Assembly (NCBI GenBank): GCA_016870325.1
Contig: VGBV01000012.1
Location: 1 to 33,707, forward strand
DNA length: 33,707 bases
From: Actinomycetota bacterium
GTDB lineage: Bacteria > Actinomycetota > Thermoleophilia > Solirubrobacterales > 70-9
Direction of reading: 5' to 3'
Part shown: positions 1 to 7,790 of the stretch, piece after piece
Numbering within the stretch: the first letter of the stretch is position 1
How the letters are laid out: each line of letters starts with the position of its first letter
Translations under genes and position numbers: made by a program
The notes under the pieces: generated by a model
Told to the model about the DNA's origin: nothing
Database searches by the model: none
Seen by the model: the letters and a program-made list of their open reading frames with translations, nothing else

Positions 1-309
1 AACCTCGCTGAAGACGGCTCCGCTAGGAGCCGGGAAGCTCCAAACGCCATATGCGTAGCTGGAACCCACGCCGCCGGTGTTGGTGACCTGCATGCCGACA
101 TCGCCCTCGTCCGTTTCTGAGCAGTCGGTAGTGCGCGGGTACACAGTGGTGTTGGTCGAGGAGACTGCGTCGGCGGCCGATGGATTCAGCGTCGAGCACT
201 CCGTCGCTACGTAGGTACCTGCGCTCGCGCTTTCGGCGCCGAAGAGGGCGGCCAGCGCCACCGACGCAACGAGTGCGCGGCTGAAGGTCCTTGCGACGCG
301 CCCCCTCAC
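1..309 (-). CDS. Secreted protein of unknown function, N-terminal part (truncated by window edge)
   Basis: Reading from a GTG at 309 gives 103 codons open to the window edge. The first 30 or so residues form a signal peptide: a basic start (VRGRVARTFSR), a hydrophobic core (ALVASVALAALFG) and a likely signal peptidase site after SASA. The mature part begins GTYVATEC and is rich in Ser, Thr, Gly and aromatic residues, as in extracellular beta-sandwich proteins. The GTG overlaps the TGA stop of the upstream sigma-factor gene (GTGA), so the two are translationally coupled. I infer that the protein is an extracytoplasmic product under, or sensed by, that sigma factor. I do not recognise a named family. 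The rest of the gene lies outside the window. Confidence 0.72.
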   Translation of the reverse strand, partial: MRGRVARTFSRALVASVALAALFGAESASAGTYVATECSTLNPSAADAVSSTNTTVYPRTTDCSETDEGDVGMQVTNTGGVGSSYAYGVWSFPAPSGAVFSEV

Positions 310-1679
310 TCGAACCCGAACCCCCCTCCGGACCCTCCGCCCGAGCCTCCCGAGCCTCCGCCTGACGGGGCGCCGAACTCGCCGCCGCCTGACGAGGATG
401 CGGATGAGCTGGAAGGGGTTGCCTGTTCGAAGCCGAGCTCCTTGCTGGTCTGCTGAGCCTGGGTGAGGGGCTCGGAAGCGGGTGCGACGTCGGCGGCCTC
501 GGCCGATTCGGTCGGGGTCAGCTCCGGCCGGGTGACGCCGGTGGGATCAACGGGCGCGGCGTGCTGGGGCGGGACTTCCTCGGCGACCTTCTCGGGATCG
601 CCTCGGCCCGGAATGAGGTCACCGGGGGCGACGCCGTTGACGGCGCAGTAGGCGCCGCCGCCGCCCGCGATCGCGACACCGCAGACAGCGAGGGCCTTGG
701 TGGCCGATGCCTGCAGCCCCCCGGCGATCCCGCCGGCGGCGGCCTCGCCCTCGGAGCCGGTCCCCCGGTGCGCGATCGCATAGGCCGACTCCCGGACGCG
801 ATCGACTGCGCCTCCGACCTTGTCGGCGAGCCACTCGTGAGCGCGCCCTCCCGTGCCTTGATCGAGGGCGGGGCCGGCGGGGAACAGCTCGAAGACGCGA
901 TCCGGGATCGCGCGGAAGGCCCGCAACTTGGCCCTGCAGGTCGCGCAACTGCGGAGGTGCAGGCCGACGTCGTCCGCGCCGGCGACGTCGGCCTCCCCGT
1001 CAGCCAGCGCCGAGAGCGCGGCCGAGAGCTGCTCGCAGCGGCGACCCTCCTCGATGTCGGCGAAGACCGACAGGAACCGCTTCCTCCCCTCGGCCATACA
1101 GCGATTGATCTTCGTGTGGCTCCATCCCGTGATCTTGCCGATCTCCGCGTAGGAGTACCCCTGAGCCTTGAGGACCAGGGCGCGGAGCTCGTGCGGCTTG
1201 AGCGAGCGAAGCGCCTCCCTGCTGCGCACCACCCGCTCGCGGCTGGCGGCGCGTTCTGTCGGGCCGTCTCCATCGGAGGCGATCGTGGCGAAGGGGTCGC
1301 GATCGTCGTCCCCGTCGACCGAGTGCCCGCCGCTGAGAAGCCGCTCGCGCTGGCGCCGCACCGAGAGCGCCTCGCGCTTGGTCACCACCTGCATCCAGCG
1401 CACGATCGAGTCCCCCTCGAGCGGCGGCGCCTTGGTCAGCAGGATCTCGAGCGAGCGCTGGTATGCGTCCTCGGCGTCCTCGGAGCAGATCGAGTAGCGG
1501 CGGGCCGTCCGCCTGAAGACGGCGTCGTGACTCTCGATCAGGCATTCGGCGACCTCGGCCCGCTCGGCCTGAGTGATCCGGTCGACTTCTTCCCTGGCCG
1601 CCCGCGAGTCCTCCGCCTCAGCCGGCGCGGACTCCGAGACAACTCCCTCCGCAGCTGTCAAGCCCCTCTCCTTCTTCAC
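306..1679 (-). CDS. Sigma-70 family (ECF-like) factor with C-terminal zinc-finger and membrane segment
   Basis: 457 aa. Residues about 45-120 resemble sigma region 2 (AYQRSLEIL...VRWMQVVTKREAL). Residues about 150-205 are a region 4 helix-turn-helix (LRSLKPHELRALVLKAQGYSYAEIGKITG). Then comes a zinc-binding anti-sigma-like motif HxxxCxxC (HLRSCATC), a Gly/Ala-rich hydrophobic stretch (TKALAVCGVAIAGGGGAYC) that could span the membrane, and a Pro/Ser/Gly-rich tail ending in GGGSGG repeats. A sigma factor and its anti-sigma module therefore seem fused in one membrane-bound chain. Such C-terminally extended ECF factors are known in Actinobacteria. The GTG at 1679 has no Shine-Dalgarno sequence; a TTG at 1661 preceded by AAGGAG is a credible alternative start. 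The stop overlaps the GTG of the secreted-protein gene. The Gly/Ser tail may lie outside the cell (inference). Confidence 0.85.
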   Translation of the reverse strand: MKKERGLTAAEGVVSESAPAEAEDSRAAREEVDRITQAERAEVAECLIESHDAVFRRTARRYSICSEDAEDAYQRSLEILLTKAPPLEGDSIVRWMQVVTKREALSVRRQRERLLSGGHSVDGDDDRDPFATIASDGDGPTERAASRERVVRSREALRSLKPHELRALVLKAQGYSYAEIGKITGWSHTKINRCMAEGRKRFLSVFADIEEGRRCEQLSAALSALADGEADVAGADDVGLHLRSCATCRAKLRAFRAIPDRVFELFPAGPALDQGTGGRAHEWLADKVGGAVDRVRESAYAIAHRGTGSEGEAAAGGIAGGLQASATKALAVCGVAIAGGGGAYCAVNGVAPGDLIPGRGDPEKVAEEVPPQHAAPVDPTGVTRPELTPTESAEAADVAPASEPLTQAQQTSKELGFEQATPSSSSASSSGGGEFGAPSGGGSGGSGGGSGGGFGFE

Positions 1680-2104
1680 AACGAGATGAGGAAGAAACTC
1701 TCACGGCTTCCCCCTCATTGCCAATCGCGACGGGCGCAAATTGCGGGAAAGTTGTCGGCCGGGGCGGGGGTACGGCTCGCCCGTCCTCAGCGCCGCGCGA
1801 TCACCGGGGTGGCGAGGTGGATGCGCTCGAACAGGGCGGCCAGGTTCTCGTCGCGGGCCCGGAGGCAGCCGGCGAAAGCGGCGGCGAGCGCCGGGCGATC
1901 AGCGCGGCCTAACCGAACGCTCGCTGCGTCACGCTTCCCCTGGCACGACGTCCTCCTTGACCCGGGCCGCCATCCGCGGCGCTCCTGCGTTGATGCCGAT
2001 CCCGGACGGGGCCGATCAAGCATCCGAGGCCAGCATCGGCATCACCCGGACGGGGTGAAGGCCCGCGAGCCGCGCTATTCGCGCATTTCGCGGGCGCCCG
2101 TGGA
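1680..2104. other. Intergenic spacer of about 425 nt, hairpin-rich at its right end
   Basis: This lies between the sigma-factor start and the tRNA-Ser(GCT) gene. I see no convincing complete gene. A minus-strand ORF at 1787-2023 (78 aa) has a plausible C-terminal half (ALAAAFAGCLRARDENLAALFERIHLATPVIARR) that could be the end of a decayed gene, but I cannot assign a family. From 1991 to 2095 there are three nested or consecutive inverted repeats: TGATGCCGAT/ATCGGCATCA (1991-2000 with 2035-2044), TCACCC/GGGTGA (2042-2047 with 2053-2058) and GCCCGCGA/TCGCGGGC (2061-2068 with 2088-2095). The promoter of the sigma gene should lie in the left part, but I cannot place a clear -10 box. Confidence 0.5.
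2061..2095 (-). terminator. Hairpin downstream of tRNA-Ser(GCT)
   Basis: A perfect 8-bp stem GCCCGCGA/TCGCGGGC encloses a second GCGC/GCGC stem with a 5-nt loop. It starts 10 nt beyond the 3' end of the minus-strand tRNA. There is no U-tract, as is common in very GC-rich genomes, so its role as terminator is inferred from position. Confidence 0.45.
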
Positions 2105-7656: not shown

Positions 7657-7671
7657 TGCTCGGAGCACCCC

Positions 7672-7760
7672 GGAGGGGTGGCAGAGCGGTTGAATGCGGC
7701 GGCCTTGAAAGTCGCTAGGGGCCCTTCGGTCCCTCGGGGGTTCGAATCCCTCCCCCTCCG
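7672..7760 (+). tRNA. tRNA-Ser(TGA)
   Basis: 89-nt class II tRNA. The acceptor is GGAGGGG/CCCCTCC with G73. The anticodon stem GCGGC/GTCGC closes the loop CTTGAAA with anticodon TGA. There is a long variable arm (GGGGCCCTTCGGTCCC region) and a T arm GGGGG-TTCGAAT-CCCTC. CCA is not encoded. It decodes UCA and related codons. A truncated HD-GYP fragment begins about 55 nt after its 3' end, as is often seen where elements have inserted and been lost at a tRNA gene. Confidence 0.95.
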
Positions 7761-7790
7761 TGATTTCCAGGTGTTCCGCTTCAGAAATCA
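7761..7790 (+). terminator. Inverted repeat immediately behind tRNA-Ser(TGA)
   Basis: TGATTTC (7761-7767) and GAAATCA (7784-7790) form a 7-bp stem with a 16-nt loop, starting at the first base after the tRNA. It could end the tRNA transcript, or be part of an old attachment or junction region. Confidence 0.35.

What the first reader, a model, noticed from the sequence alone, without database searches (positions are those of the whole stretch)
306..1679. Sigma factor, anti-sigma-like zinc finger and membrane anchor in one chain, coupled to a secreted protein
The protein joins sigma regions 2 and 4, an HxxxCxxC motif, a likely membrane span and a long Gly/Ser tail. Its stop overlaps the GTG of a signal-peptide gene. 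Release of the sigma part by proteolysis, or a shape change on an outside signal, would make a single-chain signalling device, with the secreted neighbour as possible target or partner.
Basis: partly seen in the sequence, partly recalled or inferred. Interest (0 to 1): 0.5.

Follow-up and report, generated by a model that had tools for sequence, protein, structure and literature searches.

The report
Membrane-tethered sigma with secreted partner
A soil bacterium's gene switch carries its own brake and a probable membrane anchor in one protein, is made together with a secreted surface protein, has relatives that end in a conserved tail tip, and in several relatives is cut in two by virus-like DNA at one fixed spot.

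Summary
The 457-aa protein is an ECF sigma factor (regions 2 and 4) fused to a zinc anti-sigma-type domain, one weak predicted membrane span and a disordered tail; its stop shares GTGA with the start of a signal-peptide gene that the contig end cuts at 103 aa. It belongs to a family found in one actinobacterial class. A secreted Ig-like protein gene follows directly in 56 of 106 usable relatives: all of the window's own family and of a second one, most outside the order, few in two further families. Single-chain sigma/anti-sigma/anchor proteins are already known (ECF48/52/53), so the proposed device is not new in kind. Three features were not found in print by my searches: (i) the tail ends in an EF-type tip in 88 of 110 distinct complete genes (5 of 360 control ORFs), also seen on a second, non-sigma membrane protein family; (ii) sigma and secreted partner diverge together, paralogues included; (iii) in six relatives the gene is split within the same codons of region 4, with a large serine recombinase at the break, as skin does in sigK. 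Membrane location, proteolytic release and docking of the tip are inferred, not shown.

The parts
306..1679 (-). single-chain ECF sigma / zinc domain / span / tail protein, 457 aa
1341..1541 (-). sigma region 2, residues 47-113
   Evidence: Pfam PF04542; coordinates
1077..1220 (-). sigma region 4, residues 154-201
   Evidence: Pfam PF08281
1104..1115 (-). codons T-K-I-N of the region 4 helix: the place where six relatives' genes are split; intact here
885..1043 (-). zinc anti-sigma-type domain, residues 213-265, ligand candidates C215, H241, C245, C248
   Evidence: zf-HC2; invariant in 28 relatives; three confident helices
633..695 (-). predicted weak membrane span, residues 329-349
   Evidence: hydropathy only
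309..632 (-). disordered tail, residues 350-457
   Evidence: mostly pLDDT under 50
426..440 (-). tail motif copy ELGFE
366..380 (-). tail motif copy EFGAP
309..320 (-). C-terminal tip FGFE, a variant of the family's EF-type tip
306..309 (-). GTGA: stop of the sigma gene overlapping the start of the next gene
1..309 (-). start of the coupled signal-peptide gene, 103 aa up to the contig end
   Evidence: weak resemblance to relatives' N-terminal domain
1736..1744 (.). GCAAATTGC box upstream of the sigma gene
   Evidence: 25 of 129 upstream regions hold it, 0.36 in shuffles; position
1707..1716 (.). G-rich element (GAGGGGGAAG on the gene's strand)
   Evidence: related GGGGGAGA is common in the same family; position

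Best explanation
It is a membrane-tethered ECF sigma factor kept silent by its own zinc anti-sigma domain and reporting on the cell surface. Regions 2 and 4 and the zinc domain lie in the cytoplasm, one span crosses the membrane, and a disordered tail with repeated EF-type motifs and a conserved terminal tip lies outside. The tip is a handle for something outside: either the Ig-like protein translated from the same message, or a protease or receptor shared with other EF-tipped membrane proteins. When tip occupancy changes, proteolysis outside and then in the membrane frees the sigma part, which transcribes its own operon and so adjusts the supply of the secreted protein. Shown here by sequence: domain order, conserved ligand residues, predicted span, tip, coupling, joint divergence. 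Inferred: topology, inhibition in cis, proteolysis, the tip's partner, autoregulation.
For: Domain order and ligand residues; the family profile finds SigE, SigH, RpoE and the anti-sigma factor RsiW among solved structures. Tip: E[FML] within the last 7 residues in 88 of 110 distinct complete genes (90 of 112) against 5 of 360 other ORFs of the same loci. It is kept through synonymous change: 51 tails ending EF[GAS]P use ten codons at the third place and four for Pro. E[FYW] occurs 91 times in tail bodies, 12.8 expected from shuffling. The same tip ends 13 of 13 readable members of a second single-span family. Secreted neighbour in 56 of 106 usable relatives, with a start codon at the 4-nt overlap in 41 of those 56. 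Divergence of the two proteins correlates, r = 0.91 over 55 pairs (0 of 999 permutations) and 0.71 over 13 pairs of family f2 (1 of 999). Charge bias fits an outside tail. The genome has M50 and S41 proteases.
Against: The span is weak (1.76; 22 of 112 fall under 1.6). The tip does not depend on the neighbour: 42 of 50 unpaired and 44 of 56 paired genes have it. M50 and S41 families ring in 14 and 10 of 14 control genomes, so their presence adds little. pTM is 0.42 and no error matrix was at hand, so packing of the zinc domain on the sigma domains is untested. r = 0.91 partly reflects species relatedness, one locus was in that set twice, and nearest neighbours agree in only 5 of 13 f2 pairs. 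No promoter was tied to this sigma factor.
Confidence: 0.55

Rival explanations
1. The secreted protein is only a product of the operon that this sigma factor controls, with no part in sensing; the tip is read by a protease or receptor shared with other EF-tipped membrane proteins.
For: The tip is as common without the adjacent gene (42 of 50) as with it (44 of 56) and ends a second, non-sigma family. Autoregulated operons are usual for ECF factors (PMC5826349 discussion).
Against: Exact overlap of the two genes and joint divergence, paralogues included; neither proves contact.
Confidence: 0.45
2. The hydrophobic stretch is not a membrane span: the protein is soluble, the zinc domain is a cytoplasmic sensor, for instance of oxidation, and the tail with its tip works inside the cell.
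For: Weak Gly/Ala-rich stretch; zinc anti-sigma domains are often redox sensors (PMC8999054 passages); the second EF-tipped family has an Arg-rich tail, odd for an outside segment.
Against: A hydrophobic stretch is kept across the family and is stronger in the other order (over 2.0 in most of those loci); positive-inside bias; coupling to an exported protein.
Confidence: 0.2
3. The conserved tip is a by-product of DNA needs of the overlapping downstream gene (ribosome-binding site, start codon).
For: Many tails overlap the next start by 4 nt, which fixes part of the last codon; CCA is the commonest Pro codon, 26 of 51.
Against: Synonymous spread at the tip, 42 of 50 unpaired genes keep it, and a non-sigma family has it.
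Confidence: 0.03

Closest known systems
ECF52 (SCO4117 of Streptomyces coelicolor); also ECF48 and ECF53
   Same: ECF sigma, zinc finger, transmembrane region and low-complexity extension in one chain; proteolytic release proposed (PMC5826349 abstract and two sections; PMC8999054 passages)
   Different: No carbohydrate-binding module found in this chain; a conserved EF tip and, in many relatives, a separate coupled secreted Ig-like protein
IutY of Pseudomonas putida (ECF243)
   Same: Sigma fused to a membrane-bound anti-sigma and released by proteolysis (Prc, RseP), as told in PMC8999054 (passages)
   Different: Iron-starvation cell-surface signalling; no zinc domain or Ig-like partner is named in the passages I saw
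Zinc anti-sigma (ZAS) factors such as RsiW
   Same: C-x25-H-x3-C-x2-C, invariant in 28 relatives; profile match to RsiW 5wuq_C, E 7e-4
   Different: Here it is part of the sigma chain
skin element in sigK (PMC5025042, PMC4191935, PMC13141910: search listing only)
   Same: In six relatives a large serine recombinase lies where a sigma gene is split
   Different: An ECF sigma/anti-sigma gene, split in codons of region 4, by two diverged recombinase groups; no excision shown. The window's own gene is intact

Membership tests
ECF sigma factors | regions 2 and 4, match to the ECF model | tested here: met
   TIGR02937 49.1 bits against cut-off 42.9; Pfam r2 and r4_2 just under cut-off
Zinc anti-sigma (ZAS) domain | Hx3Cx2C with an upstream ligand in a helical domain | tested here: met
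   C215, H241, C245, C248 invariant in 28; helices 213-226, 232-244, 246-265
Zinc anti-sigma (ZAS) domain | binds zinc and inhibits the sigma factor | not testable with these tools
   needs biochemistry
ECF52 | sigma, zinc finger, transmembrane region and Pro-rich extension in one chain | tested here: inconclusive
   domains present; the span is only predicted; tails of the family are 15.3% Pro, the window's own is Gly/Ser-rich
ECF52 | C-terminal carbohydrate-binding module | tested here: not met
   no Pfam match after residue 249 at E up to 1
ECF48 / ECF52 / ECF53 | match to the published group models or tree | not tested
   models not held; the paper gkaa1229 is not held
single-chain sigma released by proteolysis (IutY-like) | membrane location and a cleavage that frees the sigma part | not testable with these tools
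   only a predicted span and presence of M50 and S41 proteases
skin-type interrupted sigma gene | serine-recombinase element inside a sigma gene | tested here: met
   met in six relatives; the window's gene is not interrupted
skin-type interrupted sigma gene | excision that restores the gene in some cells | not testable with these tools
   needs reads or cultures

The most novel reading that the evidence does not exclude
The terminal EF peptide is a docking tag by which a tethered sigma factor reads the secretion or assembly state of the Ig-like surface protein made from the same message; the tag is shared with other membrane proteins of the class as part of one outside recognition system; and in part of the order this sensor gene is a preferred attachment site at which phages and satellites with large serine recombinases switch it off, possibly reversibly.
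Probability: 0.2. Interest if true: 0.85.

Novelty: new variant of a known kind. Interest (0 to 1): 0.58.

Why it matters
If true, a class of common, hardly studied soil actinobacteria controls a surface protein with a one-protein sensor that carries its own outside tag, a simpler design than the usual sigma, anti-sigma and sensor sets. The tip is a concrete peptide to use as bait. The repeated splitting of the gene at one place by serine-recombinase elements offers natural knock-outs, a source of integrases with a defined target, and a second case beside sigK of a sigma gene as phage attachment site.

Tried and rejected
Ribosome-binding-site origin of the tip: set aside on codon spread, presence in unpaired genes and in another family. 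The tip as a general tag: in 390.5 kb of one relative, EF falls in the last 7 residues of 1 of 290 called genes (FE: 7); for the broader E[FMYL] there was no excess, 21 against 20 for the reverse; the caller missed that relative's own sigma gene, so it under-counts. A promoter for this sigma factor: not assigned; upstream boxes are enriched but may belong to another regulator, and family f2 gave no clear one. Homology of the window's 103-aa fragment to relatives' N-terminal domain: a weak lead only; a 23-sequence profile ranks it first over 3000 shuffles (17.5 against 11.4 bits), but the f1 profile gives 7.5 against 7.4 and the f3 and f2 profiles rank it below decoys. Phmmer with the fragment matched only itself. 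Foldseek with the secreted model gave long Ig-type chains at low TM-scores; with the sigma model only 2 matches at E 0.001 or better, TM-scores up to 0.33. Own-genome pattern for EFGFE: one internal hit, no C-terminus. Of 42 hits, some read TGG or end short chance frames. Pfam support for the secreted proteins is modest: of 10 tested, Big_13 over cut-off in 4; CarboxypepD_reg seen in 7, never over cut-off; one (L114) looks unrelated. Literature: searches found no paper; two general reviews; in the listings of 9, 78, 82 and 93 I saw no such family and no ECF gene as attachment site; those papers were not read except PMC8999054 and PMC5826349 in part.

Rows dropped or corrected: one search left out 26 of 138 loci (3' end missing or no zinc motif); five f1 sigma-only loci with a stop are among them, so 'all of f1' means complete genes with the zinc motif. 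Two loci were in that set twice (L050 = L233, L247 = L163), found; hence 88 of 110 instead of 90 of 112. In one search the window and L114 counted as paired only by matching themselves; both were taken out, with the duplicates and three loci under 280 nt of room: 56 of 106. still holds the duplicates. I fetched 120 stretches for hits, not every listed hit.

Full report
WHAT IS THERE. The window is one whole contig of a 2.5-Mb assembly. ORF 306-1679(-) encodes 457 aa: sigma region 2 (47-113), region 4 (154-201), a zinc anti-sigma-type domain (213-265), a Gly/Ala-rich hydrophobic stretch (329-349) and a tail to 457. The AlphaFold2 model on 28 sequences is confident over region 2, region 4 and the zinc domain and mostly under pLDDT 50 from residue 304 on. 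The family profile finds 9 solved sequences at E 0.001: SigE, SigH, RpoE, RsiW, and two response regulators by their helix-turn-helix. The next gene starts inside the stop (GTGA, 306-309) and runs off the contig after 103 aa.

THE FAMILY. The window protein has matches in 168 of 232 genomes of its order at E up to 0.001, weak and sigma-only ones included. Among 39 named loci most are MAGs of Solirubrobacterales, Thermoleophilaceae, Miltoncostaeales or unassigned actinobacteria; three are labelled Bifidobacterium breve, probably wrongly, and one weak hit is in Hymenobacter. In 396 genomes of the phylum the listed matches at 1e-40 or better all lie in this class; the best listed outside it is 3e-27 (only four candidates scored per genome). 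C215, H241, C245 and C248 are invariant in 28 sequences.

THE TAIL TIP. After a tail that hardly aligns, the last residues are conserved: EFGP, EFSP, EFAP, EFGFE, EMGLE and the like just before the stop. E[FML] falls in the last 7 residues of 88 of 110 distinct complete genes: f1 24 of 27, f2 4 of 13, f3 34 of 39, f4 14 of 19, loci from outside the order 12 of 12; against 5 of 360 other ORFs of the same loci. The window itself is among the 22 without it: it ends GGFGFE, a variant, with ELGFE and EFGAP copies further up. In tail bodies E[FYW] occurs 91 times, 12.8 expected from shuffling. In 51 tails ending EF[GAS]P the codons vary: GAG 47 / GAA 4, TTC 47 / TTT 4, ten codons at the third place, four for Pro. 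A GEFGP-stop pattern over 232 genomes gave 42 hits against 9 for the reversed control; by my comparison, 24 lie at the end of a sigma match. It also led to a second family: proteins of some 130-290 aa with one N-terminal span and a Pro/Arg-rich tail. Of 18 genomes matched, two look spurious and three are cut by the stretch end; the 13 readable ones all end with an EF motif (GEFGP, PEFL, GEFTPDPG, GEFSFEV, NEFIPAG, AEFGL, SEFGFE and others). So the tip looks like a short recognition peptide used by more than one membrane protein.

THE SECRETED PARTNER. In relatives the downstream gene runs from about 440 to 1000 aa, with a signal peptide by script, and Ig-like (Big_13) and CarboxypepD_reg-like matches, many of them under cut-off. 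Its C-terminal region aligns across two orders. The model is all-beta, mean pLDDT 82.7, and Foldseek finds long chains of Ig-type domains at low TM-scores. It lies directly downstream in 56 of 106 usable relatives: f1 26 of 26, f2 13 of 13, f3 8 of 39, f4 1 of 18, outside the order 8 of 10; 41 of the 56 have a start codon at the 4-nt overlap. The tip is in 44 of 56 paired and 42 of 50 unpaired genes, so it does not depend on adjacency. Distances within the two families correlate at r = 0.91 over 55 pairs (0 of 999 permutations), partly from species relatedness and with one locus in twice; over 13 pairs of family f2, with two to four paralogues per genome, r = 0.71 (1 of 999), though nearest neighbours agree in only 5 of 13. 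Related secreted proteins are elsewhere in many genomes (168 of 232 at E 1e-20, four candidates scored per genome). In three genus-g2 loci read, a small third gene follows.

SPLIT GENES. In some relatives the profile finds the two parts of the gene apart. In four genomes both halves lie on one contig and strand, about 9.0, 10.7, 18.5 and 40.2 kb apart (G062, G192, G196, G181). In these and in G071 and G218 a large serine recombinase (Resolvase, Recombinase and zinc-ribbon matches, not every one over cut-off) sits at the end of the front half. The break lies within the T-K-V-N codons of the region 4 helix; all six front halves and the four back halves read there share ACNAA. The recombinases form two groups, 32-40% and 37-46% identical inside and 19-28% between, pointing opposite to and along with the sigma gene, so the place was probably targeted at least twice. 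The 40-kb insert has phage portal, terminase, head, sheath and tape-measure genes; the 9-kb one has a capsid-family gene. Back halves of G062, G181 and G192 keep zinc domain and tip; that of G196 is cut by the contig end. In G062 a secreted-type gene still follows. Congeners have the intact codons. The contig of G083 ends at this place, and G009 is split a few codons further with no recombinase in the stretches read; G217 is unresolved. This recalls skin in sigK. Whether excision ever restores the gene cannot be told from assemblies.

MECHANISM. Best supported is a tethered sigma factor inhibited in cis and released on an outside event read by the tail, with its operon partner as sensor or product. 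The tip's persistence without the adjacent gene and its use by another family weigh toward a shared reader such as a protease or receptor; overlap and joint divergence weigh toward the partner. I cannot decide between these.

KNOWN OR NEW. The single-chain design is known: ECF48/52/53 and IutY (PMC8999054, passages; PMC5826349, abstract and two sections). This chain lacks the ECF52 carbohydrate-binding module, so I do not file it there. The EF tip, the Ig-like partner operon and the attachment site in region 4 codons were not found in print by searches, which cover open-licence papers only.

Noticed in passing
L305 (G062), L306/L307 (G196), L308/L309 (G181), L329/L357 (G192), L326 (G071), L327 (G218): Homologues of the window's gene split within the same region 4 codons, with large serine recombinases at the junction; the G181 insert is a prophage with head and tail genes.
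   Followed up: yes
L200:9197-9625(+), L201:3402-3809(+), L213-L229: Second protein family with one N-terminal span, a Pro/Arg-rich tail and the same EF-type C-terminus, beside a gene that looks like rpsF (recalled label).
   Followed up: partly
window:1736-1744 and 1707-1716; upstream regions of relatives: GCAAATTGC box and a G-rich element (GGGGGAGA in f1, GGGGGCGA in f3/f4) ahead of the sigma gene, enriched over shuffles; function unknown.
   Followed up: partly
L131, L139, L147, L245, L246, L323, L324: Sigma-only proteins that end just after region 4 without zinc domain or tail; some lie beside sugar-nucleotide epimerase-like genes (recalled label).
   Followed up: partly
L331 (G060), L328 (G064), L332 (G069): Sigma region 2 runs in frame into other sequence before the end of region 4 (weak Ig-like match in L331, Pro-rich match in L328); perhaps deletion remnants.
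   Followed up: partly
L251 (G000:C63): The window's genome has a second zinc-finger protein of anti-sigma type, as a separate gene next to a sigma-like gene: the ordinary two-gene layout (labels recalled).
   Followed up: no
L038:8157-8585(+): Small third gene overlapping the secreted gene in genus g2; no Pfam match.
   Followed up: partly
window:2105-2194(-) and 7671-7761(+): Two tRNA-Ser genes with different anticodons (gct, tga) near the sigma gene.
   Followed up: no
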